From Pseudomonas pergaminensis (GTDB taxonomy: Bacteria > Pseudomonadota > Gammaproteobacteria > Pseudomonadales > Pseudomonadaceae), in assembly GCF_024112395.2 (NCBI RefSeq), contig NZ_CP078013.2, forward strand, positions 2,232,001 through 2,296,000: DNA of 64,000 nucleotides, given 5' to 3'. Every line of letters starts with the position of its first letter. Positions within the stretch are counted from its first letter, which is position 1. Of this stretch, positions 4,199 to 19,112 are shown piece after piece. Made by a program: the position numbers and the translations under genes. The notes beneath the pieces were generated by a model, which did no database searches, was not told the DNA's origin, and saw only the letters and a program-made list of their open reading frames with translations.

Positions 4199-4246
4199 GG
4201 CGTTCCTGTCCGTGGTCGAGGGGCTGCCCATTGTGCACACGCCTCC

Positions 4247-6073
4247 TCAGGGTTGCCAGGTGGTTTTCTCGCCGCTGAGCTTGCGGTCCAGGAACGTCGC
4301 CGCGCTGATCAACGCCAGGTGGCTCAAGGCCTGGGGCGTGTTGCCCAAGTGGCGGGCCTGGCTGTCGAATTCCTCTGCGTACAAACCCAGGGGGTTGGCG
4401 TAGCGCAGCAGTTGTTCGAATTCCAGGTGAGCTTTTTCCACTTGGCCGGCGCGGGCCAGGCATTCGACATACCAGAAGGAGCAGGCCGCGAACGCGCCTT
4501 CGGTGCCTTGCAGGCCGTCGATCTGGCTGTCGTCGTTGCGATAGCGGTAGACCATGCCGTCGCGTACCAGGCTTTTCTGGATGGCTTCCAAGGTCGAGAG
4601 CCAGCGCGGATCGGTCGCCGCGACGAACCGCACCAACGGCATCAGTAACATCGAGCCGTCGAGCGCGGTGCTACCGGTGTGCTGCACGAAATGCCCGCGT
4701 TCCTCGTTCCAGAAGTTGCTCCAGATATCGGCGTAGATCGCTTGGCGGGTCTGGTCCCAGCGCGCGAATGGCGCCGGCAGCGACCGTTTGGACGCCAGGC
4801 GGATGGCACGGTCCAGCGCCACCCAGCACATCAGCCTCGAGTGCAGGAAGTGATGCTGCTCGCCGCGCATTTCCCAGATGCCCACATCTTGGGTATTCCA
4901 GATCTCGCAAACCTGGTCGGCGACTTCCACGGTGTGTTTCCAGCCTTCGTGGGAGATGGCTTCCCCGTACTTGTTGACCAAGTACACCGCGTCCATCAGC
5001 TCGCCGTAGATGTCCAACTGGATCTGGTCGAACGCCTCGTTGCCGATGCGTACCGGCTTGGCGCCGCCGTGGCCGCTGAAGTGATCGAGTTCGGCCTCCG
5101 GCAATTCCTGGCGGCCGTCGATGCCGTACAGGATATTGATCTTGGTCGGCTGGCTGCAGCAGTCGCTGACCCGGCCTTTGAGCCAGCGCATATAGGCGTT
5201 GGCTTCTTCGATAAAGCCCAGGCGCATGAAGGCGTAGACGGTGAACGATGCATCGCGGATCCAGGTGTAGCGGTAGTCCCAGTTGCGCTCGCCACCGGGC
5301 GTTTCGGGCAGGCCGAAGGTGGCGGCGGCGATGATTGCGCCGTGTTTGCGCGAGGTCAACAGCTTGAGGGCCAGCGCCGAGCGGTTGACCATTTCACGCC
5401 AGCGTCCGCGGTAATTCGACTGCGCGATCCAGCCGCGCCAGAACTTCAAGGTATGGGCCAGCGCCAGGTCGGTGCAGCCGCAGTCCACGCGTTCATCCTC
5501 CTGGCCGCCGAGGACGAACTCGGCACCTTCTTCCTGGCCCAGGGCAAAACTGGCCACGGCGGCGTTGTCCTCGATTTGCAGCGTGTGGCTGCCGGACAGG
5601 CGCAGGCCGGGTTGGCCGTCGGCACTGAATACAACGGAGCCGTTATCCATGTCGGCGTGCGTCGGCGTGCGGGCGTAGTCATGCCGCACCGCGCAGCGCA
5701 GATGAAGCGTGGCCTTGCCACTGACCACCCGCACGCGGCGGATCAGCAGGGGCAAGTCATCGATTTCTTCGCTGATGACCAGCAGGTCGGTGATCTCGAC
5801 CACGGCGTCGTCGCTGAGCCAACGGGTCTGCAGCACGTTGGTGTCGGGCAGGTAAATCTGTTCGCGGCGCGCGTTGGGCAGGTCCGGGGTGAGCTGGAAG
5901 ATCCCGGCGTCGGGGCTGTCCAGCAGTGCGCAGAAGATCGACGGGCTGTCGAATTCCGGCCAGCAGAAAAAGTCGATACTGCCTTTGTCATTCACCAAGG
6001 CGGCACTGCGCATATCGCCAATAATGCCGTGTGCATCGATGGCGCTCTGTTTTTCGTTCTTCAAATCAACCAT
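4247..6073 (-). CDS. Glycoside hydrolase family 15 protein (glucoamylase/trehalase type)
   Basis: A protein of about 608 residues with the bacterial GH15 architecture: an N-terminal beta-sandwich (roughly 1-220, starting with IIGDMRSAALVNDKGSIDFF) and a C-terminal (alpha/alpha)6 barrel (roughly 240-600). Diagnostic blocks are ERNWDYRYTWIRDASFTVYA, HTGSTALDGSMLLMPLVRF and EGAFAACSFWYVECLARAG. Family members cleave alpha-glucosidic bonds (glucoamylase, trehalase, glucodextranase); the substrate here is not resolved. No signal peptide is seen, so it is likely cytosolic and acts on internal glucan or trehalose. Start choice: ATG at 6073 or GTG two codons upstream (6079), both behind GGAG. It overlaps the end of the upstream SDR gene by 8 bp and is probably co-transcribed with it. 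Confidence 0.85.
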   Translation of the reverse strand: MVDLKNEKQSAIDAHGIIGDMRSAALVNDKGSIDFFCWPEFDSPSIFCALLDSPDAGIFQLTPDLPNARREQIYLPDTNVLQTRWLSDDAVVEITDLLVISEEIDDLPLLIRRVRVVSGKATLHLRCAVRHDYARTPTHADMDNGSVVFSADGQPGLRLSGSHTLQIEDNAAVASFALGQEEGAEFVLGGQEDERVDCGCTDLALAHTLKFWRGWIAQSNYRGRWREMVNRSALALKLLTSRKHGAIIAAATFGLPETPGGERNWDYRYTWIRDASFTVYAFMRLGFIEEANAYMRWLKGRVSDCCSQPTKINILYGIDGRQELPEAELDHFSGHGGAKPVRIGNEAFDQIQLDIYGELMDAVYLVNKYGEAISHEGWKHTVEVADQVCEIWNTQDVGIWEMRGEQHHFLHSRLMCWVALDRAIRLASKRSLPAPFARWDQTRQAIYADIWSNFWNEERGHFVQHTGSTALDGSMLLMPLVRFVAATDPRWLSTLEAIQKSLVRDGMVYRYRNDDSQIDGLQGTEGAFAACSFWYVECLARAGQVEKAHLEFEQLLRYANPLGLYAEEFDSQARHLGNTPQALSHLALISAATFLDRKLSGEKTTWQP

Positions 6074-6866
6074 TGCCACGAAACTCCGGATATAGGCTCA
6101 TGCCGCCGTCAATAAAAAGCGTGCTGCCGACGACATAGTCGGACGCATCACTGGCCAGCCACACAACGGCGTTGGCCACATCTTCCACATCGCCTACGCG
6201 ACCGTAGGGGATCAGCTTGAGCAGTTCCTGTTCCGCCGCACCTTCGGTGGCCGCCCGGTTAATCGCCGTACGGATCGCCCCCGGCGCAATGCCGTTGATG
6301 CGGATGCGCTGTTCGCTGACTTCCTGGGCGAGGGTTCGCATCAACATTTCCACGCCGCCCTTGGATGCCGCGTAATTCACGTGCCCGGCCCAGGGGATCA
6401 ACTGGTGCACCGAGCTCATATGAATGATTTTGCCGGCAGCCCGCGACACGCCTTCGCGCACGCCCTGGCGGTTGAAAATGCGCACGGCCGCACGGGCGCA
6501 CAAGAACTGGCCAGTGAGGTTGACGCCAATCACCGTATTCCAGTCCTCGAGACTCATGTCCACCAGGTTGGCGTCCTTCTGCATACCGGAGTTGGCCACC
6601 AGGATGTCCAAGTGGCCGAAGGCATCCAGGGTCTGGGCAAACAGCCGTTCCACGTCTTCTTCTATTGATACGTTGGCGCCGATGGCAATCGCTCGGCCAC
6701 CCTCGGCATTGATCTGTTCGGCCAACGCCTCGGCCGGGGCGGCCTGGCTGTTGTAATTCAGCACCACGGACGCTCCGGCTTGCGCCAAGGCCTTGGCCGC
6801 GCCGGCGCCGATTCCGGAACTGGCGCCTGTCACCAGGGCCACTTGTTTCTCCAACGAGATACGCAT
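6066..6866 (-). CDS. SDR oxidoreductase, glucose 1-dehydrogenase type
   Basis: A 266-residue classical short-chain dehydrogenase/reductase. It has the cofactor motif TGASSGIG (about 13-20), the VANSG variant of NNAG in the middle, the catalytic Ser in IIHMSSVHQ, the YAASK active-site motif, and the C-terminal FIDGGMSLYPEF typical of bacterial glucose 1-dehydrogenase-like SDRs. It would oxidise a sugar or polyol with NAD(P). It sits immediately upstream of the GH15 gene and overlaps it by 8 bp, so release of glucose followed by oxidation is a plausible joint role, but that is inference. Confidence 0.85.
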   Translation of the reverse strand: MRISLEKQVALVTGASSGIGAGAAKALAQAGASVVLNYNSQAAPAEALAEQINAEGGRAIAIGANVSIEEDVERLFAQTLDAFGHLDILVANSGMQKDANLVDMSLEDWNTVIGVNLTGQFLCARAAVRIFNRQGVREGVSRAAGKIIHMSSVHQLIPWAGHVNYAASKGGVEMLMRTLAQEVSEQRIRINGIAPGAIRTAINRAATEGAAEQELLKLIPYGRVGDVEDVANAVVWLASDASDYVVGSTLFIDGGMSLYPEFRGNG

Positions 6867-7024
6867 TGCTCACCGACCTTAAAATTCGTGAGTTCAAGTA
6901 GCTGACTGACGGCGCGCAAGGGAAGTTCATCCGTGTGAATTTAGCGACTACAACCATGGTGAAAAATGGAATAACAGAACTATAAAAAATAACCATAAGA
7001 TACTAAAAAACCGCTCAAAAGCGT

Positions 7025-7053
7025 TTGACAGGCTTTTTCGTCGCGTGTCTTAT
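7025..7053 (+). promoter_or_regulatory. Putative sigma-70 promoter of the sulfotransferase cluster
   Basis: TTGACA at 7025-7030 and TCTTAT at 7048-7053 are separated by exactly 17 bp. This sits in an AT-rich gap (about 6940-7120) upstream of the HAD gene at 7121. A transcript starting near 7060 would have a leader of about 60 bases. The same gap must also hold the promoter of the leftward SDR gene. Confidence 0.5.
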
Positions 7054-7120
7054 AGGCACACCTCAACCCGCTCCGTTGGTAGTTCGGAAGTCATCGCGGG
7101 GCCACCTATAAGAGATATCT

Positions 7121-7825
7121 ATGTGCCATTCGGCCGATATAGGGGAACTACCAGGTCAGGTAAAAACAGCGGCCTTAGTTGGCGTGCCTAAGTTAGTCAT
7201 CTTCGATTGCGACGGTGTACTCGTGCAAAGTGAAGAGATAACCCTGTCTGTGTTGATCGCCATGCTTAATGCGCTTGCTCAGCGCGAGACGATGCTTGAT
7301 GTCACCCGTTTTATTGAGCACTTTCGTGGACGCAAGATTGCCGATTGTTTGCGTGAGGCTGAACAGCTTTTAAATATCAGCCTGGAGGCTGAGTTTGAAC
7401 AGCACTTTCGCCAGCAGGCATGGGAAGCGCTGACACTCAGTTTAAAAGCCACAGAGGGAATGATTGAAGTACTGGAAGGCCTGGCTGTTCCTTATTGCGT
7501 TGCCTCGAGTGCGCCGCGCAATAAGATCGAACACTGTTTGCGTATGACCGGGCTGCTTCCTTATTTCGAAGGGCGAATATTCAGTTGTTATGAGTTGGGC
7601 CGTTGGAAACCGGATCCCTTGGTGTTTCTGACCGCCTGTGACACGTACGGTGTTGATGTCAGTGATGCCGTGGTGGTTGAAGACAGTGTCACCGGCATTC
7701 AGGCGGCGGTTGCCGCTCATATAAGTGTCATCGGTTTTGGCCCGGCCCATCGGCATTCGCAGTTGGCCGCTGCCGGCGCAGTGCCCATTACCGATATACG
7801 TGAATTACTGGCCATTTTTAATTGA
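7121..7825 (+). CDS. HAD-superfamily phosphatase, beta-phosphoglucomutase-like
   Basis: A 234-residue haloacid dehalogenase-type hydrolase with a small alpha-helical cap. Motif I is FDCDGVLVQSEE with Asp29 and Asp31; motif II is VASSAP near residue 126; the motif III/IV region is GRWKPDPLVFL followed by VVVEDSVTGIQAA. The family dephosphorylates sugar phosphates or moves phosphate within them, so here it most likely removes phosphate from a pathway intermediate. It is the first gene of a run of eight same-strand genes with very short gaps. Base composition by eye is clearly more AT-rich than the flanking genes, consistent with transfer. The ATG at 7121 has only a weak upstream AGAG. Confidence 0.82.
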   Translation: MCHSADIGELPGQVKTAALVGVPKLVIFDCDGVLVQSEEITLSVLIAMLNALAQRETMLDVTRFIEHFRGRKIADCLREAEQLLNISLEAEFEQHFRQQAWEALTLSLKATEGMIEVLEGLAVPYCVASSAPRNKIEHCLRMTGLLPYFEGRIFSCYELGRWKPDPLVFLTACDTYGVDVSDAVVVEDSVTGIQAAVAAHISVIGFGPAHRHSQLAAAGAVPITDIRELLAIFN

Positions 7826-7850
7826 TCTCATTACTCAGGGAGGAGGCGTC

Positions 7851-9074
7851 GTGAACACACTTGGTTACCCGGAGCGGCTTAAACGCAACGATCAAAGCTC
7901 GCAAGTTTGGTGGGATTCATCGCCTGCCGTGTACCTGCCCTACAAACAACACCTGCTGGAAAAGTACCCGGCGGCGGCCACTTATATAGAAGCCTTGATG
8001 CCGGATGAATTCTCAGCGCCTTGGGGCTTGTGCAGCGTGACCACCAACCCTCGGTTGGTGACGGCCGTAATCCTCGAAAAGCGCGAGTATTGGTCTTCAC
8101 GCTTCAACCTGGCCAGCCTGTCTCCAGCTGAGTTGCGCAAGCAGCTGTACAACGAGGTCATCCTTGAAGGGGCTGCGACGCTCAAGCCGCGCTGGGTTCA
8201 ATCGGCCCAAGCCGAAGGTTGGATTTCCGCGCAAGTCGACCCGGTGGACGTGCGCTGCACCGAGCGCATGACCGCCAGGGGCCTGGAGCTGCAGCGCCTG
8301 GCGCCGAACGTGATGGTCAAGGTGCCGGGCAGCCTGGAAGGCATGGCAACCGTTGAACAACTGGTGGCCCAGGGCGGGTCGGTGAATATCACGTTCTGCT
8401 TCACGGTCGCCCAGTTCCAGACGGGTATCCAGGCCATCGAGCGCGGCAGGGCGACCGCGCGCAGCAACGGGATCGACACCAGCCACTGCAACTACGTCAT
8501 TACCTTCATGATTGGGCGCTTCGCCTGCCAGCCTGAATTCACGCTGCAAGCGGCGGAACGCGGCCTGGCATTGAGCGCCGAGGAGCTGCGCTGGGCCGAA
8601 CTGATGATCTACGAGCAGATCCAGGCGCTGGTGGCGGCCTCGACCGTGCCGGTCAAAACCCTGCTCTCGAGCATAAAGGTCGACGTGGACGAGCGGGGCA
8701 ACAAGCACTGCTGGCACCTGGAAAAAACCGGGCAGACGGCGACCTGCTACACGCTGACCCCGGAGGTGGTGGAGTTTCTGATCGAGCGCGAAAGCCACGG
8801 CAAACCGGTGGCGCCCGCCGTGCAGCCGCAGAAGCCGCCGGCGGCAACCTTCGCCAAGCTGATTCGCATCCCGTATTTCTACGAAGCCTACTTTGTCGAC
8901 AGCATCGAGCCGTATGACTTCGGCAACCACGAAGCCTTCATCAACGCCTGCAACGAGGCCAACAGTGCGCACCGACGCCTGGCCGACTACTGCGTTCGGC
9001 TTTGCCCGGTGACCAAACCCTTCAAGCGCGCACTCAATGCGTTGCTCGCCGCCGAATTCGGGGTGATCGCATGA
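7851..9074 (+). CDS. Transaldolase-like enzyme
   Basis: A 407-residue protein with transaldolase-family hallmarks: SVTTNP near residue 62 and the Schiff-base region NVMVKVPGSLEG with Lys157, followed by GSVNITFCFTVAQF. Transaldolases transfer a dihydroxyacetone unit between aldehydes, so this enzyme could lengthen or build a sugar-like carbon skeleton. It is much longer than the short transaldolases of about 220 residues and has a C-terminal part (about 300-407) that does not look like the TalA/TalB core. I chose the GTG at 7851 because GGGAGGAGG lies directly upstream; the frame stays open further upstream but that part overlaps the HAD gene. The stop overlaps the next start (ATGA). Confidence 0.8.
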   Translation: MNTLGYPERLKRNDQSSQVWWDSSPAVYLPYKQHLLEKYPAAATYIEALMPDEFSAPWGLCSVTTNPRLVTAVILEKREYWSSRFNLASLSPAELRKQLYNEVILEGAATLKPRWVQSAQAEGWISAQVDPVDVRCTERMTARGLELQRLAPNVMVKVPGSLEGMATVEQLVAQGGSVNITFCFTVAQFQTGIQAIERGRATARSNGIDTSHCNYVITFMIGRFACQPEFTLQAAERGLALSAEELRWAELMIYEQIQALVAASTVPVKTLLSSIKVDVDERGNKHCWHLEKTGQTATCYTLTPEVVEFLIERESHGKPVAPAVQPQKPPAATFAKLIRIPYFYEAYFVDSIEPYDFGNHEAFINACNEANSAHRRLADYCVRLCPVTKPFKRALNALLAAEFGVIA

Positions 9075-9799
9075 ACCGTATGATCGGGTTATGGGCCCAT
9101 CCACGTTCGCGCTCCACCGTGCTGGAGCGTGTGTTTATCGAGCGGGGGGACTTCGAGGTCTTTCATGAACCCTTTGCGCACATGGCCTTTTCCGAGGACT
9201 CGGCGATTCCTTCGGATGAGTGGGATCACAGTTTGCCCACGACTTACGAGGGTATAAAAGAGCATCTTCTCAAGGCCCGCGAGCGCACTAACGTGTTTCA
9301 CAAAGATATGTGCTACCACTGCCTGGATGACTTGAAAGTGGATGTCGACTTTCTTGCGCAACAGGACAATGTCTTTCTGATTCGCGAACCCGCCAGCAGT
9401 ATTATTTCCCATCATCGGGTGCACCCCGATATGCCGTTGCAGGCCATTGGGCATAAAGCGCTGTATGACATATTTTGTGTGGTCACCAAACTAACCGGAA
9501 AAGTGCCTTATGTGATTAATGCCGATGATCTGGCGGCCGACCCGGAGCGAGTTATTCGCAAACTCTGCGATCACCTGAGTATTGAGTTTTTGCCACAGGC
9601 CATGACATGGAAACGTGAATGTCCACAACAATGGAAAACCTGGCGCAGTTGGCACGTGGCGGCAGAAAACAGTGAGCGTATTGTGTCGCCGGATAATCAA
9701 CCGGTTGATGTGCAGGCATTCGAACAGTTTCCGAAGTTAAAAGCGATGTATGAATACCATCGGACCTTTTACGCGCGCATGAATGAGTTTTGTCAATAA
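9071..9799 (+). CDS. Sulfotransferase-family protein
   Basis: A 242-residue protein whose N-terminus, GLWAHPRSRSTVLERVF, is the 5'-phosphosulfate-binding loop of PAPS-dependent sulfotransferases (P-R-S-x-S/T-T pattern). A second conserved element, FLIREPASSIISHHR near residue 105, resembles the 3'-phosphate-binding RdPrd.v.S motif. It should transfer sulfate from PAPS to a hydroxyl or amine of a small molecule in the cytosol. A dedicated APS kinase is encoded at the end of the same gene run, which fits the need for PAPS. It starts in a 4-bp ATGA overlap with the transaldolase-like gene and is locally AT-richer than its neighbours. The acceptor is unknown. Sulfation could be final decoration or could create a leaving group. 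Confidence 0.78.
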   Translation: MNRMIGLWAHPRSRSTVLERVFIERGDFEVFHEPFAHMAFSEDSAIPSDEWDHSLPTTYEGIKEHLLKARERTNVFHKDMCYHCLDDLKVDVDFLAQQDNVFLIREPASSIISHHRVHPDMPLQAIGHKALYDIFCVVTKLTGKVPYVINADDLAADPERVIRKLCDHLSIEFLPQAMTWKRECPQQWKTWRSWHVAAENSERIVSPDNQPVDVQAFEQFPKLKAMYEYHRTFYARMNEFCQ

Positions 9800-9809
9800 G
9801 GATTGTTGT

Positions 9810-10535
9810 ATGAAGAAGCTGATTGTGACCGGAGCGGCCAACGGAATTGGTCGGGCAACTGTTGAAATGGCGATACAGCAGGGCTACTTCGTTATTGGTG
9901 CGGACAAGGATGCCGAGGGGCTTGAAGTGTTGCAGGGACTTTATGGCCCCGATGTATTCGACGCGCAGGTTGCCGACTTTTCCGATATGGCCGTTATCAA
10001 GGGTTTTATTCCGGCCCTGTATGAACGCCATGCGACTATTTATGGGTTAGTCAATAACGCCGGTATTTATCACGGCAAAAGTGTCTATGCCTATTCCGAT
10101 GAGCAGATAGACGAGATCCTCACCGTCAACCTCAAGGCCCTGGTCTATCTCTCCAAGGACTTCGCCGAGCGGGAAATGCAGCACGAAGCCCCACGCAGCA
10201 TCGTCAACATCGCTTCGGTGGCCGGTGAGGTGGGCAGCTGCGACGCCCTCTACGGTGCCACCAAGGCGGCGGTGATCGGCCTGACCAAGGCCAACGCCTG
10301 GAACTTCGCCCCGTTCGTGCGGGTGAACGTGGTGTCCCCGGCGCTGATCCACGAAACCGCCATCTACGGCACCATCCCCGAATATCGCCGTGCCGAGTAC
10401 GCCCGCCAGGAGGTCCTCAAGGACCCGATCCTGCCCAGTGGGGTGGCCGAGGTCATCTTGCTGCTGGTCGGCGATGCCATGCGTCACATCACCGGCCGGG
10501 TAATTCCGGTCGACAACGGAGCCTACCCACGGTGA
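9810..10535 (+). CDS. SDR-family oxidoreductase
   Basis: A 241-residue short-chain dehydrogenase/reductase. It shows the TGAANGIG cofactor loop at residues 7-14, VNNAGIYHG for the NNAG motif, NIASVAGEVGS with the catalytic Ser, and LYGATKAAVIG with Tyr and Lys. The C-terminal part ends VIPVDNGAYPR. It would oxidise or reduce an alcohol/ketone in the pathway. The start at 9810 has AAGGA upstream; an in-frame ATG at 9783 lies inside the sulfotransferase gene. The first 250 bp are AT-rich like the preceding gene, and the composition then rises sharply. It overlaps the next gene by 4 bp. Confidence 0.83.
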   Translation: MKKLIVTGAANGIGRATVEMAIQQGYFVIGADKDAEGLEVLQGLYGPDVFDAQVADFSDMAVIKGFIPALYERHATIYGLVNNAGIYHGKSVYAYSDEQIDEILTVNLKALVYLSKDFAEREMQHEAPRSIVNIASVAGEVGSCDALYGATKAAVIGLTKANAWNFAPFVRVNVVSPALIHETAIYGTIPEYRRAEYARQEVLKDPILPSGVAEVILLLVGDAMRHITGRVIPVDNGAYPR

Positions 10536-11668
10536 GCCATTCCATGCGCAAGAAAAAGCTGCTGCTGGTGGGCGCCGGCAACCTGTGCCTGCAGATCCTC
10601 AAGATTCTGGGGCCAAAAAACGCCTTCGAGTTTGTGGTGCTTGGCCGCAATGAAGAGGTGACGCTGCGGTTGTGCAACCTGGTGGCGCTGTCGTGTGCGC
10701 AGCTGGGGCAATTCATCGCGATCAAGCCGGTGATTGCCGACCTCACGGACATCGGCAAGGTCGCGCAGCTGCTGCGCGAAGAGGCGCCGGACATGCTGGT
10801 GAACTGCGCGTCGCTGCAGTCATGGCGGGTCATCACCGGGTTGCCCAAGCTGTCATTCGAAAAGCTCGACCAGGCCCAGTTCGGCCCCTGGCTGCCCATG
10901 CACCTGACGTTGATGCACTGCCTGATGCAAGCGGTAAAAGCCTCCGGCATCACGACGAAGACCGTCAATGCAGCGTTCCCGGATGCGGTCAATCCGATCC
11001 TGGCGCGCATCGGCCTGGCGCCGGACATCGGCGTGGGCAACGTGGCCAATCTGGTCCCGGCGGTGCGTCTGTCCATTGCCCGTCTGATGGAATGTGCGCC
11101 CGCCGATGTGCAGGTGCAGCTTTATGCCCAGCATTACTTCAGCCACTACGTGCCGCGCGGTGGTCTGCCTCCACGTGCCAGCTATCGCCTGTTGCACGAG
11201 GTGCGCGACCGACCGGACGTGGCGCGCCTGCCGGCCGAGGCGATTTTCTCAACGGTGAAGTCCGAGTACCGCCGCCTGGGCGGGGTGGACGGGCAGTTTC
11301 TCACCGCGTGTTCTGCGGTCACGGTCATCGAAGGGCTGTTCTCGCCCACGCCGGTGCTGGTGCATGCGCCGGGTCCTCTCGGGCTGCCGGGCGGGTACCC
11401 GGTGCGGCTGCACGATGGACGGATCGAGGTGCAGTTCTCCGAGGCCTGCCCCCAGGACGATGCGGTGCGCCTCAATACCATCTGCCAGAGCCAGGACGGC
11501 ATCGACGAAATCCACTGCGATGGTTCGGTCACCTACAACCCGCAGTGCATGGCCGTCATGCAATCGATGCTGGGCTATGCCAAGCACACCATGTCCATCG
11601 AGCAGTCCGCCGAGTTTGCCCGCGAGTTGGCGAGCAAATACTTGTCCTTCAAAAATTCAACCTGGTAG
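10532..11668 (+). CDS. Saccharopine dehydrogenase-like NAD(P)-binding reductase
   Basis: A 378-residue protein that starts with a Rossmann motif, LLLVGAGNLCLQIL (about residues 10-23), followed by PDMLVNCAS near residue 90, the arrangement seen in saccharopine dehydrogenase-type reductases. The remainder is a poorly recognisable catalytic domain with an internal AAFPDAVNPIL segment and a C-terminal helical end. Such enzymes join or release an amine and a keto compound using NAD(P)H, so reductive amination or imine reduction of a pathway intermediate is possible. The GTG at 10532 overlaps the preceding stop (GTGA); an ATG four codons later is an alternative. Assignment rests mainly on the N-terminal half. 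Confidence 0.62.
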   Translation: MSHSMRKKKLLLVGAGNLCLQILKILGPKNAFEFVVLGRNEEVTLRLCNLVALSCAQLGQFIAIKPVIADLTDIGKVAQLLREEAPDMLVNCASLQSWRVITGLPKLSFEKLDQAQFGPWLPMHLTLMHCLMQAVKASGITTKTVNAAFPDAVNPILARIGLAPDIGVGNVANLVPAVRLSIARLMECAPADVQVQLYAQHYFSHYVPRGGLPPRASYRLLHEVRDRPDVARLPAEAIFSTVKSEYRRLGGVDGQFLTACSAVTVIEGLFSPTPVLVHAPGPLGLPGGYPVRLHDGRIEVQFSEACPQDDAVRLNTICQSQDGIDEIHCDGSVTYNPQCMAVMQSMLGYAKHTMSIEQSAEFARELASKYLSFKNSTW

Positions 11669-11675
11669 GTGTGTG

Positions 11676-12446
11676 ATGAATCAGATGTCGGGGCGCAAGC
11701 ACAACGAAGTTGCCAGTTATGCCACGCAGTATTCGGCGGATTTTGTCGAGCGTTGGGATGAGTTGATTGATTGGGAAAAACGCAAGATAGGGGAGGACGG
11801 CTTCTTTGAACACTTGCTGCGACGCCACGGCGTGAAGTCGGTGATCGACGTTTCGACGGGCAGTGGCTTTCATGCTGTGCAGCTCAAGCAGGCGGGGTTT
11901 GATGTGGTCGCCACCGATGGCAGCAGCACCATGTTGACCAAGGCGCGGGCGAACTTTCGCAAACATGGCCTGGACATCCAGTCCCATTATCGGGACTGGC
12001 ACTCACTGGACGCCCAGGAGCTTGGCCAGTTCGATGCGGTGGTGTGCCTGGGCAGTTCGCTGTGCCATGTGTTCGCCGCGCACGACCGGCTGCAGGTGCT
12101 GGCGAAATTCAGGGCCTTGCTCAAGCCGGGCGGCCTGCTGATTGTGGACCAGCGCAATTTCTTCGCCATCCGTGCCGGCAAATTCAAAGCCAGCGGCCAT
12201 TACTACTACTGCGGTACGAACGCTTCGGTGAGCCTGGGACAGGTCGATGAGCACCTGTGTGAGTTCATCTATTCCTTCGATAACCAGGAGCAGTACAGGC
12301 TGCAGGTTTATCCGCTGTTGCCGGGGGAGTTGAAGGGAGAAGTACTCAAGTCCGGATTTACCGACCATGAGAGCTACGGTGATTTCGAACGTGACTACGA
12401 CATGATGGATTGTGATTTCGTCATCCACACTGCGCGCGCCGAATAA
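11676..12446 (+). CDS. Glycine/sarcosine N-methyltransferase-like SAM enzyme
   Basis: A 256-residue class I methyltransferase. Motif I is VIDVSTGSGFHAVQL, followed by the acidic ribose-binding VVATDGS. The segments AVVCLGSSLCHV and GGLLIVDQRNFFAI, with a following YYYCGTNASV, match the layout of glycine N-methyltransferases (VICLGNSFAHL, GGLLVIDHRNY, NIYY). Such enzymes methylate amino groups of glycine, sarcosine or related small molecules. The ATG at 11676 lies 7 bp after the previous stop, behind AGGTG; the frame is open further upstream but that part shadows the reductase gene. In context it probably N-methylates the cluster product or a precursor amino acid. True substrate identity is unknown. 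Confidence 0.72.
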   Translation: MNQMSGRKHNEVASYATQYSADFVERWDELIDWEKRKIGEDGFFEHLLRRHGVKSVIDVSTGSGFHAVQLKQAGFDVVATDGSSTMLTKARANFRKHGLDIQSHYRDWHSLDAQELGQFDAVVCLGSSLCHVFAAHDRLQVLAKFRALLKPGGLLIVDQRNFFAIRAGKFKASGHYYYCGTNASVSLGQVDEHLCEFIYSFDNQEQYRLQVYPLLPGELKGEVLKSGFTDHESYGDFERDYDMMDCDFVIHTARAE

Positions 12447-12455
12447 GGAGGCTAG

Positions 12456-13685
12456 ATGAGCACACTCGTACAGAGCAATGCCCGCCCACTGGACAGCGTC
12501 GTGCTGGCGATCGTCCTCACCGGGTTCGTGGCCAGTACCTATGGCTTCGGGGTTTACCTGTTCGCCAACCTGGTGGTGGACATGCGCCGCGACATCGGCT
12601 TCGACTACACCACGGTGGGCCTGATCACCGGCGGCGCGCAGATCGGCTTCCTGCTGTTTTCATCGGTCACCAGTGTCATCAGCCGATATTTCGAGGGCTG
12701 GAAAATCAGCCTGGTCTCCACCGTGATGACCTCCCTGGCGTTGCTGGGCCTGAGCATCAGTCACAGTATCTGGTTGTCGGGCGCCTTGTTGATCCTGCTC
12801 GGCGGCTGCTCCGCGTCGGTGTATATCCCATTGGCGGAGATCGTCACCAAGGGTTTCAGCCCGGGCAATCGCTCGCGGGTCATGGGGCTGATCTCCAGCG
12901 GCACCAGCTATGGCGTGTTCATCAATGGCTTGCTGGTGTCGTTCCTGACCTTGAATGGCGGCTGGCGCTCGATCTGGCTCACCGCCGGGCTGATCTCGGT
13001 AGCCCTGTGCGTGGTGGCCTGGTTTCTGTTGCGCAACCTGTCGGCAAGCCAGGACACCGGGTTCGCCGGGGAGCGCGCCAGTGCGTCGGACAGCCACCAA
13101 CCTTGGCTCAGCCGCTCGTTGTACCTGACCTGGGTCATCGCTTTTCTCAATGGCATGGCGCTGCTGCCGTTCCAGACTTACCTGGCGCCGTTCCTTCGCG
13201 ATGAATTGGGCGTGTCGGTACGGGATGCCGGCTTTGTGTGGACCACTATCGGCGCCGTGGGCATGGCGTCGGGGTTCCTGGTGGGATGGATTGCCGACAA
13301 GGTGGGCGTGCGGGCGTCGCTGGCGATGTGTTTCCTGAGCGCGGGGCTGGCTGCCACGCTGGTGTTCAGTTTCAACAGCCTTGCGCTGTTCTACCTGGCC
13401 GCGTTTTTGTTTGCGTTGGCGTTCTACCCCATCTTCGGGTTGGTCCCCAGTTACATCGGGCAGATCGTGCCGGTCAGCCGGCTGACCCAGGCCTTCGGCA
13501 TTGCCAACGTGTTGATCGGCCTGGGTGGCGTGTGCGGCAACTTCCTTGGCGGTTTTTCCAAGGACCTGACCGGGTCGTTCTCGACGGTCTACTGGGTGGT
13601 TGCGCTGTTGCTGTTCGTGCAATGCGTGATGGTGTTCATGTTGGGTAAACAGCCTGTTCCAGTGAGGGAGGGTGAGCGGTCATGA
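12456..13685 (+). CDS. MFS transporter of the sulfotransferase cluster
   Basis: A 409-residue major facilitator with about 12 hydrophobic segments, starting VVLAIVLTGFVASTYGFGVY and ending VYWVVALLLFVQCVMVFML. Signature positions include the loop between helices 2 and 3, and KGFSPGNRSRVMGLISSG between helices 4 and 5, which resembles the MFS motif found in YbfB/oxalate-formate-type carriers. An AAGGAGG Shine-Dalgarno precedes the ATG. Its position inside the gene run makes it the likely exporter (or importer) of the product. The stop overlaps the APS kinase start (4 bp). Confidence 0.82.
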   Translation: MSTLVQSNARPLDSVVLAIVLTGFVASTYGFGVYLFANLVVDMRRDIGFDYTTVGLITGGAQIGFLLFSSVTSVISRYFEGWKISLVSTVMTSLALLGLSISHSIWLSGALLILLGGCSASVYIPLAEIVTKGFSPGNRSRVMGLISSGTSYGVFINGLLVSFLTLNGGWRSIWLTAGLISVALCVVAWFLLRNLSASQDTGFAGERASASDSHQPWLSRSLYLTWVIAFLNGMALLPFQTYLAPFLRDELGVSVRDAGFVWTTIGAVGMASGFLVGWIADKVGVRASLAMCFLSAGLAATLVFSFNSLALFYLAAFLFALAFYPIFGLVPSYIGQIVPVSRLTQAFGIANVLIGLGGVCGNFLGGFSKDLTGSFSTVYWVVALLLFVQCVMVFMLGKQPVPVREGERS

Positions 13686-14296
13686 GTTATTTTCCTGAGC
13701 GTCCAAACCAGAATCTGCACGCGTTTGCGTTCAGCCACCGGCGTGGCGAACACGCGCGGATACAGCACAAGCCGGCGGTGATCTGGATGACCGGCATCTC
13801 CGCGTCCGGCAAGTCGACCATCGCCGATGCGCTGGACCTCGCCCTGCAGGAACAGGGGCGGATCACCGCGATTATTGATGGCGACTCGGTACGTGGCGGG
13901 CTGTGCCGGGACCTGGGTTTTACCGACAGCGACCGTGACGAGAATATCCGGCGGGTCGCCGAGGTCGCGCGATTGATGCTGGAGGCGGGGCTGATCGTGA
14001 TCGTGGCGCTGATCTCACCGTCGTCGGCCAGCCGCCACTACGCGCGCTCGATCATCGGCAATGAGTTTTTTGTCGAAGTGCACGTGGACGCGCCCTTGGC
14101 AACCGCCGAACAACGCGACCCCAAGGGCCTGTATAAAAAAGCCCGCGCGGGGTTGATCAAGAACTTCACTGGTATCGACTCCCGCTATGACGTGCCGGTG
14201 TTTCCGGAAGTGCACCTGAATACCCAGGCGCTTTCAGTGGAAGAGTCGGTCGCAACGATTCTTGACTGGGTGGCGCATAACGACGATCGCAACTAG
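13682..14296 (+). CDS. cysC: Adenylylsulfate (APS) kinase, stand-alone
   Basis: A 204-residue APS kinase. The P-loop is GISASGKST (residues 38-46), slightly changed from the usual GLSGSGKST. It is followed by DGDSVRGGLCRDLGF (67-80 region), FTDSDRDENIRRVAEVA and LISPSSASR, all characteristic of CysC, then the lid region DPKGLYKKARAG. It phosphorylates APS to PAPS, the sulfate donor for sulfotransferases. Pseudomonas normally carries this activity as the C-terminal part of a CysNC fusion for sulfate assimilation, so a separate cysC joined to a sulfotransferase operon suggests dedicated PAPS supply. It overlaps the transporter gene by 4 bp and ends the operon. Confidence 0.88.
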   Translation: MSYFPERPNQNLHAFAFSHRRGEHARIQHKPAVIWMTGISASGKSTIADALDLALQEQGRITAIIDGDSVRGGLCRDLGFTDSDRDENIRRVAEVARLMLEAGLIVIVALISPSSASRHYARSIIGNEFFVEVHVDAPLATAEQRDPKGLYKKARAGLIKNFTGIDSRYDVPVFPEVHLNTQALSVEESVATILDWVAHNDDRN

Positions 14297-14392
14297 CCGT
14301 CTGTCTTTGCGTCGTGGGGGCAGTGTTTGCAACGCGAAAAAACAAGGTAATCTGCGCCATCGCACGGAGAACGCGTTTTTTCAGGAGCAGGC

Positions 14393-15037
14393 ATGACACA
14401 TTTTACGGGCACTGCAAAATCGATCCGTCTGATTGGTGGGGCCCGGGTATTGGACTTTATCAATACCACCAACGGCCGTCGTCCCGGCACGGCGCTCAAG
14501 GTCATGGAAGAACGGCTCACCAGTTTTCAGTTCTTCTTTGAATGGGCGTTGCATGCCGCGCTGATCTCCCCCCGGGAGTTTGACGACTATAAGCCGATGG
14601 TGTTTGAGCCATCGATGGCGTACCAGCCGAACCTTGACGCGATCATCGCGTTCAGGGAATGCCTGTACGCCGTTTTCTACCCGTTGTCGTTGCAAGGTGC
14701 TGCGCCCGATGGCGCCTTGCAACAGGTCAACGAGACTTTCCAGCAGGGCGTTGCCCGTCGGGTGCTGCGTTCTGTCGAAGGCAAGCCTGCCTGGGGGTGG
14801 ATGCCCTGCACCACTACGCAAGAGCTGACGGCCATGGTACTGGGGCGCCTGGCGATAGAGGCCACGCAATTACTGGTATCCGGTGATCTGCACGCGTTGC
14901 GCAGTTGTGGCGCCACGGACTGCGATTGGGTGTTCCTCGACATCTCCAAGAATAAACAGCGCAAGTGGTGCCAGATGAGCGTGTGTGGCAGCCGGGAGAA
15001 GCTCAGCCGTCTCAAGCAGGTGGCGAGCCCGCAATAG
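14393..15037 (+). CDS. ABATE-domain, CGNR zinc-finger regulator
   Basis: A 214-residue protein of the CGNR zinc-finger family. The N-terminal ABATE-type segment is seen in RVLDFINTTNGRR. The C-terminal zinc finger spans about residues 172-201, with two cysteines in CGATDCDWVFLD and two in KWCQMSVCGSREK. Such proteins are thought to bind DNA in response to stress or metabolites. It lies 96 bp after the APS kinase gene on the same strand and is the only regulator next to the cluster, so control of that cluster is a reasonable guess. Its own upstream gap has AGGAG close to the start. Confidence 0.78.
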   Translation: MTHFTGTAKSIRLIGGARVLDFINTTNGRRPGTALKVMEERLTSFQFFFEWALHAALISPREFDDYKPMVFEPSMAYQPNLDAIIAFRECLYAVFYPLSLQGAAPDGALQQVNETFQQGVARRVLRSVEGKPAWGWMPCTTTQELTAMVLGRLAIEATQLLVSGDLHALRSCGATDCDWVFLDISKNKQRKWCQMSVCGSREKLSRLKQVASPQ

Positions 15038-15079
15038 ATTCAACGCGGTGCCGCGTACGACGGGTAGCAATTGCTCCAC

Positions 15080-15101
15080 TTAATAGGAAGCATTACTATT
15101 C
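15080..15101 (+). promoter_or_regulatory. Fur-box-like element upstream of fecI
   Basis: The stretch ttaataggaagcattactat, continuing with t, forms an imperfect inverted repeat of the AATAnGAAnnATTnCTATT kind, close to Fur-box relatives found before Pseudomonas iron-starvation sigma genes. It lies about 30 bases before the fecI ATG. Assignment is by eye. Confidence 0.4.
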
Positions 15102-15128
15102 ACGCCCCGCCTCCCCAGTGCTCCCGCG

Positions 15129-15629
15129 ATGATCCCTCAGCCGCCCCGCAGAACAGGCTTTTTCGAACACTACGAAGAGTTGATCGGGACCTGGACGCGC
15201 CGCCTGAGAAACCGTCAGCAGGCCGAAGACCTGGCCCACGACACCTTTGTGCGAGTGCTGGAGTCAACCTCCTCTGAAGTAGAGCAACCGCGTGCCTATC
15301 TGCATCAAACGGCGCGCAATATCGCAGTGGACGCTTATCGACGCGAAGACCGTCGGGAAGCGATCACGCTGGAAGCCTTTGATCAGCGTTCGCCCCACAG
15401 TGGCGACCCGGAGCACTTCATGCACGCGATCCAGTTGGCGGACTCTATCGAGCGGGCCCTGGCCGAACTGCCACTCAACTGCCGCAAGATTTTCATCTGG
15501 CAGAAAATCGAGGGCCTGACCCAGCAGGAAATCGCTGCACGCCTGGGGCTGTCTAAAAACATGGTGGAAAAGTATATGATCCGCACCCTGCGGCATCTGC
15601 GCGACCGCCTGGACGCGATGGCGCCATGA
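15129..15629 (+). CDS. fecI: FecI-type ECF sigma factor
   Basis: A 166-residue extracytoplasmic-function sigma factor of the iron-starvation group. Region 2 includes RQQAEDLAHDTFVRVLE and the helix RAYLHQTARNIAVDAYRRED. Region 4 has LPLNCRKIFIWQKIEGLTQQ followed by a helix-turn-helix, IAARLGLSKNMVEKYMIR. It should direct RNA polymerase to the receptor gene downstream when the anti-sigma partner signals that the ferric ligand is bound. It overlaps fecR by 4 bp. Expression is probably set by Fur through the element just upstream. Confidence 0.9.
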   Translation: MIPQPPRRTGFFEHYEELIGTWTRRLRNRQQAEDLAHDTFVRVLESTSSEVEQPRAYLHQTARNIAVDAYRREDRREAITLEAFDQRSPHSGDPEHFMHAIQLADSIERALAELPLNCRKIFIWQKIEGLTQQEIAARLGLSKNMVEKYMIRTLRHLRDRLDAMAP

Positions 15630-16609
15630 CCGCCCGCCATGAAACAGGACCTTCCATGATGGATAACCGTGCCCGAGACGAAGCCGCGCAATGGTTTGTG
15701 CGCCTGCAAGACGCCGAGTTGAGCGTTGCCGAGCGCCAGCGCTTCGACGCATGGCGCCTTGAGCATGCCGACCACCAATATGAGTTCGACGTGCTGCAAG
15801 GCCTGTGGAGTGCCACCGACCTGCTGCCCAAGGCGCGCCTGCAGGCACTGTGTGAAGCGCCGGTAGAGCGCCCCAGACGTCGGGCTGTGTTGCGTTATGC
15901 AGTGGCTGCCAGCGTGGTGGCCATTGCCCTGGGGCTGGGCCTGTTCAGCGGGCTTGATCATCCCAAGCCCTACAGTGCCGAGTTCAGCACGCGCCTGGGC
16001 GAGCATCGCCAGGTGGCATTGCCCGATGGCTCGGTGATGGACCTCAACAGCCGCAGCATTGTCGCGGTGCACTTTGAAAAAGGCCGGCGTGGCGTGGAGC
16101 TCAAGCAGGGCGAAGCGATGTTCAGTGTCGAGCACGACACCAGCCGGCCTTTTGTCGTGGCCGCCGGGGCAGGGCAGGTGACAGTCACCGGCACGCGGTT
16201 CGATGTGCGTCGTGATGACGACCAGACCCGCGTCATGGTCGAGGCCGGTACCGTGAAGGTGCAAGGCCGTTCCCCGGACAAAGTGGTGACGCTCACCGCA
16301 GGCCTTGGGACCCATGTCGACAACAAGGGCCTGGTGGCGGCGGCCTACGGTGTGAACACCGAAGAGTTGACCGCCTGGCGCACGGGCAAGCTGGTCTTCA
16401 ACAACGCATCGTTGGGCGAAGTGGCCCGGGAAGTCTCGCGGTATCGCGAGCAACCGCTGCGGGTCAGCACGCCGTCGGTGGGCAACCTGCGCCTGACCAG
16501 CGTGTTCAAGGCCAACGATACCGATGCCTTGCTCAAGGCGTTGCCGCACATCCTGCCGGTCGCCGTGCGCACCTTGCCGGACGGCAGCCAGGAAATAATT
16601 TCACGCTGA
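15626..16609 (+). CDS. fecR: FecR-type anti-sigma regulator
   Basis: A 327-residue inner-membrane anti-sigma factor. The N-terminal cytoplasmic part (about 10-80) has the conserved RDEAAQWFVRLQDAELSVAE and FDAWRLEHADHQYEFD segments. One transmembrane helix follows at about 92-110 (YAVAASVVAIALGLGLF). The periplasmic FecR domain contains GEHRQVALPDGSVMDLN and TVTGTRFDVRRDDD. The C-terminal region, which receives the signal from the receptor, ends at residue 327. Start may be 15626 (overlapping fecI) or one of the ATGs at 15656/15659. Confidence 0.88.
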   Translation: MTARHETGPSMMDNRARDEAAQWFVRLQDAELSVAERQRFDAWRLEHADHQYEFDVLQGLWSATDLLPKARLQALCEAPVERPRRRAVLRYAVAASVVAIALGLGLFSGLDHPKPYSAEFSTRLGEHRQVALPDGSVMDLNSRSIVAVHFEKGRRGVELKQGEAMFSVEHDTSRPFVVAAGAGQVTVTGTRFDVRRDDDQTRVMVEAGTVKVQGRSPDKVVTLTAGLGTHVDNKGLVAAAYGVNTEELTAWRTGKLVFNNASLGEVAREVSRYREQPLRVSTPSVGNLRLTSVFKANDTDALLKALPHILPVAVRTLPDGSQEIISR

Positions 16610-16706
16610 CATTCAGGTTTTTTTCGAGTTCTTCGTCTTCTCCTGCAACTGCAACTGGTTTGCATTAACAGCCGCACACTTTTGCGATCACAGGACTAGG
16701 TTCGAC

Positions 16707-19112
16707 GTGAAAAAACTTGCCGTTAACAACAATAAAATCTCCCGCTGGGCGCCGCTCGCCCTGGCGCTTGCGGTGAGTGCCGCGCTGCCCGTGGCCTACG
16801 CCGCCGAGGCCATTCACATCCAGGCCCAGCCTTTGGGCGCGGCCCTCAGTCAATTGGGCCAGCAGACTTCCCTGCAAGTGTTCTTCAGCCCTGACATGGT
16901 CGCCGGCAAGCAAGCCCCTGCGGTAGACGGCAACCTTTCGCCAGAACAAGCCCTGCGCCAGTTGCTGCAAGGCAGTGGCCTGGACTACCAGATCGATGCC
17001 GGTTCCGTGACCCTGCGCCCGCTGAGCGGCGGCACCGGTGAAGCCGGCTCGCCCCTGGAACTGGGCGCCACCGACATCAAGGTGGTCGGCGACTGGCTCG
17101 GCGATGCCAACGCTGAAGTGGTGCAGAACCACCCCGGCGCGCGCACGGTGATCCGTCGCGAAGCCATGGTGGAGCAGGGCGCAATGAACGTCGGTGATGT
17201 GCTCCGGCGTGTGCCGGGTGTGCAAGTGCAGGAATCCAACGGTACGGGCGGCAGCGATATTTCCCTCAACGTCGGCGTACGTGGCCTGACGTCGCGCTTG
17301 TCGCCACGCTCCACCGTGCTGATCGATGGCGTACCGGCGGCGTTTGCGCCCTACGGCCAACCACAATTGTCGATGGCACCGATTTCCGCCGGTAACCTGG
17401 ACAGCATCGACGTGGTACGCGGTGCCGGTTCCGTGCGTTATGGGCCACAAAACGTCGGTGGTGTGATCAACTTCGTGACCCGCGCCATCCCCGAGAAATT
17501 CTCCGGCGAAGTCGGCACGACCCTGCAAACCTCCGCCCACGGTGGCTGGAAGCACGTCGATAACGCCTTTATCGGCGGCACCGCCGACAACGGCATCGGC
17601 GCTGCCTTGCTGTACTCCGGCGTCAACGGCAACGGTTACCGCAACAGCAACAACTCCAACGACATCGACGACGTGATCTTCAAGACCCACTGGGCACCGA
17701 CCGACCAAGACGACTTCTCGCTGAACTTCCACTACTACGACGCCAGCGCCGACATGCCCGGTGGCCTGACCCAGAAGCAGTTCGACGCCAACCCGTACCA
17801 ATCGGTGCGTGACTGGGACAACTTCAGCGGGCGCCGCAAGGACGTGTCCTTCAAGTACATCCGCCAGATCGACGACCGCACACAGGCCGAAGTGCTGACC
17901 TACTACTCCGACAGTTTCCGTGGCAGTAACATCGCCAACCGTGACCTCAAGACGATCGGCTCTTACCCGCGCACCTACTACACCTTTGGCATCGAGCCGC
18001 GGGTGTCCCATGTGTTCGACGTGGGCCCGAGTACCCAGGAAGTCAGCCTGGGCTATCGCTACCTCAAGGAAGGCATGCATGAGCAGGCCACCAGCCTGAA
18101 CCTGGTCAACAATGTGCCGACCCCGGGTGGGCAGAGCGATGGTCACGTCTACCAGGACCGCACCGGGGGGACCGAGGCCAACGCGTTCTATATCGATAAC
18201 AAAGTCGATATCGGCAAGTGGACCATTACGCCCGGTATCCGCTTCGAGGACATTCGTACAGAATGGCACGACCGCCCGGTGGTTGCCTTGAACGGCACGC
18301 GCACCCAGGAAAAACGCCGCGAAATCCACAACAACGAACCGCTGCCGGCCCTGAGCGTGATGTATCACGTCTCTGATGCCTGGAAACTGTTCGCCAATTA
18401 CGAAACCTCGTTTGGCAGCCTGCAATACTTCCAGTTGGGCCAGGGCGGCACAGGCGACCAGACCGCCAATGGCCTGAACCCGGAAAAAGCCAAGACCTAC
18501 GAGGTGGGGACGCGCTACAACGACAATGTCTGGGGCGGTGAGCTGACGTTCTTCTACATCGACTTCTCGGATGAACTGCAATACGTCAGCAACGACGTGG
18601 GCTGGACCAACCTCGGCGCGACCAAGCACACCGGTATCGAAGCCTCGGCCCACTACGACCTGTCGAACCTGGACCCACGCCTGGATGGCCTGACCGCCAA
18701 CGCCGGCTTCACCTACACCAAGGCCACCTCCGAAGGCGACGTGCCGTTCAAGGGCCGCGACCTGCCGCTGTATTCCCGTGAAGTCGCCACCCTCGGGCTG
18801 CGTTACGACGTTAACCGCTGGACCCATAACCTGGATGTGTACGCCCAGTCCGGCCAGCGTGCGCCCGGCACCACGAGTACCTACATCACCCAAGGCACCG
18901 CCGATGGTCAATTTGGCGATATTCCTGGCTACGTCTCGGTCAACGTGCGCAGCGGCTATGACTTTGGCGAGCAGTTGTCCAACCTGAAACTGGGTGTCGG
19001 CGTGAAAAACGTTTTCGATCAACAGCACTACACCCGTTCCAGCGACAACAATGCCGGGCTGTACCTCGGCGAGCCACGTACATTCTTCGTGCAGGCCAGC
19101 GTCGGGTTCTGA
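16707..19112 (+). CDS. fecA: FecA-like TonB-dependent ferric-citrate receptor
   Basis: An 801-residue outer-membrane receptor. After a signal peptide ending near AYAAEA comes an STN signalling domain (about 35-110, IHIQAQPLGAALSQLG), the plug (about 125-260) and a 22-strand barrel ending in FVQASVGF with a terminal aromatic. Segments such as GVPAAFAPYGQPQLS, VVRGAGSVRYGPQNVGGV, NFVTRAIPE, GGTADNGIG, ALLYSG and DASADMPGGL follow E. coli FecA closely, so ferric dicitrate is the best-supported ligand. The STN domain signals to FecR and FecI encoded just upstream. The gene uses a GTG start and is followed by a strong terminator. Confidence 0.88.
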   Translation: MKKLAVNNNKISRWAPLALALAVSAALPVAYAAEAIHIQAQPLGAALSQLGQQTSLQVFFSPDMVAGKQAPAVDGNLSPEQALRQLLQGSGLDYQIDAGSVTLRPLSGGTGEAGSPLELGATDIKVVGDWLGDANAEVVQNHPGARTVIRREAMVEQGAMNVGDVLRRVPGVQVQESNGTGGSDISLNVGVRGLTSRLSPRSTVLIDGVPAAFAPYGQPQLSMAPISAGNLDSIDVVRGAGSVRYGPQNVGGVINFVTRAIPEKFSGEVGTTLQTSAHGGWKHVDNAFIGGTADNGIGAALLYSGVNGNGYRNSNNSNDIDDVIFKTHWAPTDQDDFSLNFHYYDASADMPGGLTQKQFDANPYQSVRDWDNFSGRRKDVSFKYIRQIDDRTQAEVLTYYSDSFRGSNIANRDLKTIGSYPRTYYTFGIEPRVSHVFDVGPSTQEVSLGYRYLKEGMHEQATSLNLVNNVPTPGGQSDGHVYQDRTGGTEANAFYIDNKVDIGKWTITPGIRFEDIRTEWHDRPVVALNGTRTQEKRREIHNNEPLPALSVMYHVSDAWKLFANYETSFGSLQYFQLGQGGTGDQTANGLNPEKAKTYEVGTRYNDNVWGGELTFFYIDFSDELQYVSNDVGWTNLGATKHTGIEASAHYDLSNLDPRLDGLTANAGFTYTKATSEGDVPFKGRDLPLYSREVATLGLRYDVNRWTHNLDVYAQSGQRAPGTTSTYITQGTADGQFGDIPGYVSVNVRSGYDFGEQLSNLKLGVGVKNVFDQQHYTRSSDNNAGLYLGEPRTFFVQASVGF

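What the first reader, a model, noticed from the sequence alone, without database searches (positions are those of the whole stretch)
7121..15037. Sulfotransferase-centred biosynthetic cluster of unknown product
Eight tightly packed genes (mostly 4-bp overlaps) encode a phosphatase, a carbon-skeleton transaldolase, a PAPS sulfotransferase, two oxidoreductases, an N-methyltransferase, a transporter and a PAPS-making kinase, with a regulator after them. Known: transaldolases build sugars (for example, LmbR in lincomycin synthesis) and PAPS comes from APS kinase. Inference: a sugar- or amino-acid-derived, sulfated and N-methylated metabolite is made and exported. It does not match a cluster I know, and it lacks NRPS, PKS or core domains that standard miners look for.
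Basis: partly seen in the sequence, partly recalled or inferred. Interest (0 to 1): 0.78.

Follow-up and report, generated by a model that had tools for sequence, protein, structure and literature searches.

The report
Pseudomonas operon for a sulfated metabolite
A compact, portable set of genes in a number of Pseudomonas species looks like a recipe for building, sulfating, N-methylating and exporting a small acidic molecule that has not been identified.

Summary
Eight same-strand genes (7121-14296) plus a CGNR-type regulator (14393-15037) form one unit, although only 3 of 7 junctions are 4-bp overlaps. I found 49 clusters in 48 Pseudomonas genomes (39 of 398 sampled genomes, own included). 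All 49 keep the order TAL-ST-SDR-OXR, and the 48 assessable ones add NMT, down to about 39-69% protein identity and at other sites. HAD, MFS, APS kinase and regulator are frequent but not universal. All 49 have the word TTTGACAGG upstream. Five of five cluster-less genomes picked through the downstream receptor show an empty site (four picked another way do not), giving a cassette of about 8.1 kb.

Residue tests sharpen the chemistry. The 'transaldolase' keeps the Schiff-base lysine but has the aldolase-type Gln instead of Glu. The methyltransferase keeps the carboxylate-binding Arg/Tyr of glycine/sarcosine N-methyltransferase, with two fixed pocket changes. The unassigned oxidoreductase is predicted to have a lactate/malate-dehydrogenase fold.

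Best reading: a self-contained specialised-metabolite operon for an exported, O-sulfated, N-methylated, carboxylate-bearing polyol or amino acid. The product is unknown and the step order is inferred. Ten open-access literature searches found no description of the cluster.

The parts
6940..15057 (.). cassette: stretch present here and absent between the same flanks in five cluster-less genomes
   Evidence: homology to L162 stops at 6939 and resumes at 15058, with 13 bp between in L162
7024..7059 (+). conserved promoter-like block TTTGACAGG...GTCTTATAGGCAC
   Evidence: TTTGACAGG exact upstream of 49 of 49 clusters; one place in the own genome. The sigma-70 scan (16-18 bp spacer) did not list it
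7071..7099 (+). conserved 5' leader block (CTCCGTTGG...CATCGCGG)
   Evidence: first lineage only; no Rfam match at E<=1
7121..7825 (+). HAD-family phosphatase
   Evidence: fused to TAL in 5 of the 120 listed TAL relatives
7851..9074 (+). transaldolase/fructose-6-phosphate-aldolase family C-C enzyme (TAL)
9071..9799 (+). PAPS sulfotransferase (PF19798) (ST)
9810..10535 (+). short-chain dehydrogenase/reductase (SDR)
10532..11668 (+). oxidoreductase with predicted LDH/MDH fold, no curated family (OXR)
11676..12446 (+). glycine/sarcosine-N-methyltransferase-like methyltransferase (NMT)
12456..13685 (+). MFS transporter, likely exporter (direction not shown)
13682..14296 (+). APS kinase (PAPS supply)
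14393..15037 (+). ABATE/CGNR zinc-finger regulator
   Evidence: inside the cassette

Best explanation
A self-contained, portable specialised-metabolite operon with its own upstream element, regulator, PAPS supply and transporter. Proposed route (order inferred): TAL joins a ketone-type donor to a phosphorylated aldehyde through a lysine Schiff base; HAD removes the phosphate; SDR and the LDH/MDH-fold OXR set the oxidation level, giving an alpha-keto, hydroxy or amino acid end; NMT methylates an amine next to a carboxylate; ST sulfates a hydroxyl using PAPS from the dedicated APS kinase; MFS exports the product. Shown here: families, key residues, co-inheritance, cassette borders, conserved upstream element. 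Inferred: substrates, step order, product class, export, and that the CGNR protein regulates the pathway.
Against: No gene among the nine makes an amine, so a host enzyme or ready-made amino acid must be assumed. HAD has no match in 10 of 49 clusters, MFS in 8 of 48 assessable, APSK in 2 of 47, CGNR in 5 of 47. NMT scores below the GSMT cut-off (243 against 350 bits). OXR has Pro where LDH has its catalytic Asp (weak alignment), so its activity is unsure; weak carboxyspermidine- and saccharopine-dehydrogenase matches also exist. TAL lacks the FSA proton-shuttle Tyr131. Four cluster-less genomes picked through SDRup do not show the empty site. No metabolite, expression or activity data.
Confidence: 0.7

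Rival explanations
1. The product is an intracellular compatible solute (a sulfated betaine-like zwitterion) made under osmotic or drying stress; the MFS protein is a retrieval or homeostasis transporter.
For: NMT is closest to GSMT, the first enzyme of betaine synthesis in Methanohalophilus. APS kinase and ST would add a charged group. MFS has no match in 8 of 48 assessable clusters, so export may not be essential.
Against: Betaine itself needs no aldolase, phosphatase or two oxidoreductases. Two GSMT pocket residues are changed in 47 of 47.
Confidence: 0.12
2. The genes make a sulfated, methylated sugar unit that is put on a surface glycan or lipid rather than a free metabolite.
For: Sugar-type carbon enzymes with a sulfotransferase; Nod-factor and polysaccharide sulfation are known uses of PAPS (recalled).
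Against: No glycosyltransferase, nucleotidyltransferase, flippase or acyltransferase match among the nine genes; NMT keeps a free-amino-acid-type carboxylate site.
Confidence: 0.1
3. A catabolic or detoxifying operon that consumes an unusual sugar acid or amino acid; sulfation and methylation inactivate it.
For: A 32-33%-identical TAL relative sits in a Shinella operon annotated with sugar-catabolic genes; OXR relatives in rhizobia sit beside alanine-racemase-type genes.
Against: A dedicated APS kinase and costly PAPS use are odd for catabolism; the stretches fetched around those relatives show no match to ST, NMT or APSK.
Confidence: 0.08

Closest known systems
Fructose-6-phosphate aldolase (FsaA) and transaldolase B (TalB), E. 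coli
   Same: Schiff-base Lys, Asn28/35, Thr109/156 and Arg134/181 kept; Gln59 as in FSA
   Different: Phe/Met around FSA Tyr131, Gln where TalB has Glu96; 407 aa against 220 and 317; PDB profile matches cover only part of it
Glycine sarcosine N-methyltransferase (MpGSMT, 5h02/5gwx)
   Same: match over residues 11-254 of 256, E 1.7e-58; Tyr26, Trp34, Arg43, His138, Arg167, Tyr185, Tyr206 identical
   Different: Asn134 to Ser and Met218 to Val in 47 of 47; below the NCBIfam equivalog cut-off
L-lactate/malate dehydrogenase superfamily
   Different: 12% identity in the top row; Pro176 at the catalytic Asp; no Pfam or NCBIfam match at E<=0.001
Bulgecins (sulfated glycopeptides; PMC5472815, passages read)
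   Same: sulfated small molecule; sulfotransferase expected
   Different: bulgecin is expected to need NRPS and glycosyltransferase; neither is among the nine genes
Orphan Pseudomonas 'NRPS 7' with sulfotransferase domain (PMC8719888, passage read)
   Same: sulfotransferase within a Pseudomonas cluster
   Different: there ST is a domain of an NRPS protein

Membership tests
Sulfotransferase PF19798 | profile match above curated cut-off | tested here: met
   56.4 bits against 23.2
Sulfotransferase PF19798 | PAPS-binding motifs conserved (motif assignment recalled) | tested here: met
   invariant H10 P11 R12 S13, S15 T16 and R105, S113 in 21 diverse sequences; PAPS use itself not assayed
APS kinase | NCBIfam cut-off | tested here: met
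   NF003013 242 bits against 163; TIGR00455 223 against 139
Transaldolase (TalB type) | Schiff-base lysine | tested here: met
   164 of 164 rows, 163 of them distinct
Transaldolase (TalB type) | catalytic Glu96 | tested here: not met
   Gln in 163 of 164, gap in 1
Fructose-6-phosphate aldolase | Gln59 | tested here: met
   role of the Gln59-Thr109-Tyr131 water network in PMC13259622 (passages)
Fructose-6-phosphate aldolase | Tyr131 | tested here: not met
   Phe in 157, Tyr in 4 of 164; the column aligned to TalB Phe178 is Met in 163 (alignment uncertain by one column here)
Glycine/sarcosine N-methyltransferase | NCBIfam NF051855 cut-off | tested here: not met
   243 bits against 350
Glycine/sarcosine N-methyltransferase | carboxylate-binding Arg167 and Tyr206 | tested here: met
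   47 of 47
Glycine/sarcosine N-methyltransferase | substrate-contacting Asn134 and Met218 | tested here: not met
   Ser and Val in 47 of 47
LDH/MDH superfamily | fold | tested here: met
LDH/MDH superfamily | catalytic Asp-His pair | tested here: not met
   His kept, Asp replaced by Pro in a weak profile alignment, E 0.014
NRPS/PKS cluster | NRPS or PKS core domain in the operon | tested here: not met
   none in the nine proteins; the SDR matches PF08659 (KR) weakly
Lincomycin-type octose pathway (LmbR) | LmbR-like octulose-phosphate synthesis | not tested
   -
Bulgecin pathway | NRPS and glycosyltransferase | tested here: not met

The most novel reading that the evidence does not exclude
A previously undescribed class of NRPS/PKS-free specialised metabolite: an aldolase-built polyhydroxy chain ending in an N-methylated alpha-amino (or hydroxy) acid and capped with O-sulfate, made by a TAL-ST-SDR-OXR-NMT core that includes an unusual Gln-type transaldolase relative and a divergent LDH/MDH-fold enzyme, spread through Pseudomonas as a plug-in cassette with a dedicated promoter.
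Probability: 0.4. Interest if true: 0.75.

Novelty: new variant of a known kind. Interest (0 to 1): 0.57.

Why it matters
It gives a bounded, testable unit for finding a possibly new sulfated natural product in Pseudomonas species such as P. simiae, P. marginalis and P. viridiflava (named loci), without the NRPS or PKS domains on which much genome mining relies. It also contains two enzyme subfamilies whose chemistry cannot be read directly from known relatives.

Tried and rejected
OXR as an opine- or saccharopine-type dehydrogenase: suggested by weak PF03435 matches in 20 of 37 relatives (E up to 1), one PF10100 hit at E 0.011, PDB hits to carboxyspermidine and saccharopine dehydrogenases at E 0.23-1.6 and source names. 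The fold comparison shows only LDH/MDH in its 50 rows, so I dropped it; that does not exclude the others.

TonB receptor, FecR and sigma factor (15129-19112) as part of the system: rejected. The receptor is in 224 of 398 genomes at E<=1e-280, far more than the 39 with the cluster, and lies outside the cassette.

EmrAB-like pump as the exporter of the second lineage: the pair lies near 8 of 8 clusters without MFS (only the L053 pair was searched against Pfam and NCBIfam). But it is 81-93% identical to the L053 pair in genomes whose cassette proteins seem to differ more (identities to the window 39-65%), so it is probably a resident neighbour; I left it out of the statement.

Relatives outside Pseudomonas. 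ST, phylum sample: 4 of 398 genomes at E<=1e-25, own and one other Pseudomonas included. Class sample: 16 of 369 at E<=1e-30, own included. I fetched the surroundings of 8 of the 19 non-Pseudomonas places; none shows another cassette gene except one weak MFS match. Burkholderia/Paraburkholderia STs of about 45-51% identity exist but their neighbourhoods could not be reached. Plasmid searches gave only distant relatives of TAL, ST and OXR.

Empty site: four cluster-less genomes picked by SDRup (L136-L139) do not have sigma-FecR-TonB next to it. The five picked by the receptor do; in four of them about 0.5-1.3 kb of other sequence fills the site.

Correlation of protein distances over both lineages (0.96-0.99 for the core) is inflated by the wide range of distances; one search repeats it within the first lineage and is the one I use.

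Rfam on the leader: no match. The sigma-70 scan did not list the conserved block.

Literature: 10 searches. I saw no description of this cluster; subscription papers are mostly not held. Passages read: PMC8719888, PMC4237756, PMC5146677, PMC13259622, PMC5472815. All others seen only as listings.
Full report
WHAT IS THERE. The window lies in a 6.6-Mb single-contig genome that is, by its relatives, a Pseudomonas. Nine genes on the + strand run from 7121 to 15037: HAD phosphatase, transaldolase-family enzyme (TAL), sulfotransferase (ST), SDR, an unassigned oxidoreductase (OXR), methyltransferase (NMT), MFS, APS kinase (APSK) and an ABATE/CGNR regulator. Three of the seven junctions within the first eight genes are 4-bp overlaps; the other gaps are 7-25 bp, and the regulator follows after 96 bp. 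All ORFs are intact.

CONSERVATION. A TAL scan of one genome per species returned 19 Pseudomonas loci. An ST search in 398 Pseudomonas genomes found 45 with a match at E<=1e-10; 39 of these (own genome included) have identities of at least 58%, the other 6 at most 32%. Ten of the 19 named loci lie in genomes of that sample, judged by equal contig lengths; the other 9 bring the set to 49 clusters in 48 genomes, since one genome (G181) carries two. TAL-ST-SDR-OXR stand in this order in 49 of 49, and NMT follows in 48 of 48 (one contig ends before it). A HAD match precedes in 39 of 49. MFS is present in 40 of 48 assessable, APSK in 45 of 47, CGNR in 42 of 47 (counts include the window). ST and MFS are broken into several frames in L061, and ST is split by about 13 kb in L062. 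The tree of ST+SDR+OXR+NMT has two deep lineages, 34 and 10 of the 44 usable rows, parted by a branch of support 100/100; the root is a midpoint and the program warns of long branches, L057 and L063 among them. I place L061 and L062 by similarity. The second lineage has identities to the window of about 39-69%, higher only in partial matches of L062, and other flanks: a cytochrome b561 gene in 7 of 11 and an EmrAB-like pair in 8 of 11.

CO-INHERITANCE. Over both lineages pairwise protein distances correlate at 0.96-0.99 among the core genes and APSK, but the wide range of distances inflates this. Within the first lineage the six genes correlate at 0.74-0.85, against 0.52-0.64 with SDRup, 0.62-0.76 with GH15 and 0.69-0.82 with FecR: a partial separation. 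Median dN/dS in the first lineage is 0.07-0.16 for the nine genes and 0.06-0.11 for three flanking genes. The stronger evidence is that the core stays together at different sites.

BORDERS AND ELEMENT. In 37 of 38 first-lineage clusters GH15 and/or SDRup lies upstream. Five of five cluster-less genomes chosen through the downstream receptor have SDRup next to sigma-FecR-TonB. In the tightest (L162) the homology breaks at 6939 and resumes at 15058, with 13 bp between, so the cassette is about 8.1 kb, includes the regulator and excludes the receptor. Four cluster-less genomes chosen through SDRup do not show this arrangement. Cassette GC is 58.4% against 63.3% and 62.2% in the window's flanks. 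The exact word TTTGACAGG stands upstream of the first gene in 49 of 49 clusters. A 12-sequence alignment shows this block and a leader of about 60 bases to be strongly conserved in the first lineage. In the second lineage the motif TTTGACAGG-N(8-16)-GGATCCA, chosen after seeing these sequences, occurs exactly once in each of 10 searched genomes (10 of the 11 with such a cluster), each time at the upstream end of the cluster, with 0 in the backward control; the own genome, of the first lineage, has none. The first-lineage version has one place in the own genome. That it is a promoter or operator is inference.

HOW IT MOST LIKELY WORKS. C-C bond formation by TAL, dephosphorylation by HAD, redox by SDR and OXR towards a 2-oxo/hydroxy/amino acid end, N-methylation by NMT, O-sulfation by ST with PAPS from APSK, export by MFS. 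Families and residues are shown; substrates and order are inferred. The source of the nitrogen is open, and so is the transporter of clusters without MFS.

NOVELTY AND LIMITS. Ten literature searches in an open-access library gave no description of this cluster; subscription journals are mostly missing. There are no metabolite, expression or activity data here. Outside Pseudomonas the ST family occurs, but the 8 of 19 places whose surroundings I fetched show no other cassette gene apart from one weak MFS match. The Burkholderia relatives remain unchecked. I rate it a new variant of a known kind: an NRPS/PKS-free specialised-metabolite operon with unusual enzyme subfamilies and an unknown product.

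Noticed in passing
L062 (G126:C4) about 3912-17037: The sulfotransferase gene of this cluster copy is split by about 13 kb of inserted sequence; the nature of the insert was not examined.
   Followed up: no
L061 (G358:C1): Cluster copy with ST and MFS each broken into more than one frame.
   Followed up: no
L068 6706-11146, L069 7064-11164, L067 7189-11179: OXR relatives (35-39%) on rhizobial plasmids stand beside an alanine-racemase-type gene and a TIGR01459 HAD, with a DMT transporter (in two) and a C45 peptidase within 10 kb: a second unexplained setting of this family.
   Followed up: partly
L050 and L051, 11983-13203: Gln-type TAL relative (L050 read) inside a Shinella operon annotated with acetoin-dehydrogenase-like subunits and two phosphatases.
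   Followed up: partly
G285:C224, G112:C63, G190:C7, G143:C75: Remote ST domain matches inside open frames of about 1380 aa, perhaps the NRPS-with-sulfotransferase of PMC8719888.
   Followed up: no
L159 about 12056-12593, L160, L161, L163: Between SDRup and the sigma factor these cluster-less genomes carry about 0.5-1.3 kb of other sequence (in L159 an ORF with a CxxCH motif seen by eye), so the spot may be an insertion hot spot.
   Followed up: no
L065 (G004) and L116 (G165): Cluster copies without a match to APSK (both) and HAD (L065), which suggests that the host can supply these functions.
   Followed up: no
L052-L056, L058-L060: An EmrAB-like pump pair, 81-93% identical to that of L053, lies near these eight MFS-less clusters; probably a resident neighbour, possibly the exporter.
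   Followed up: partly
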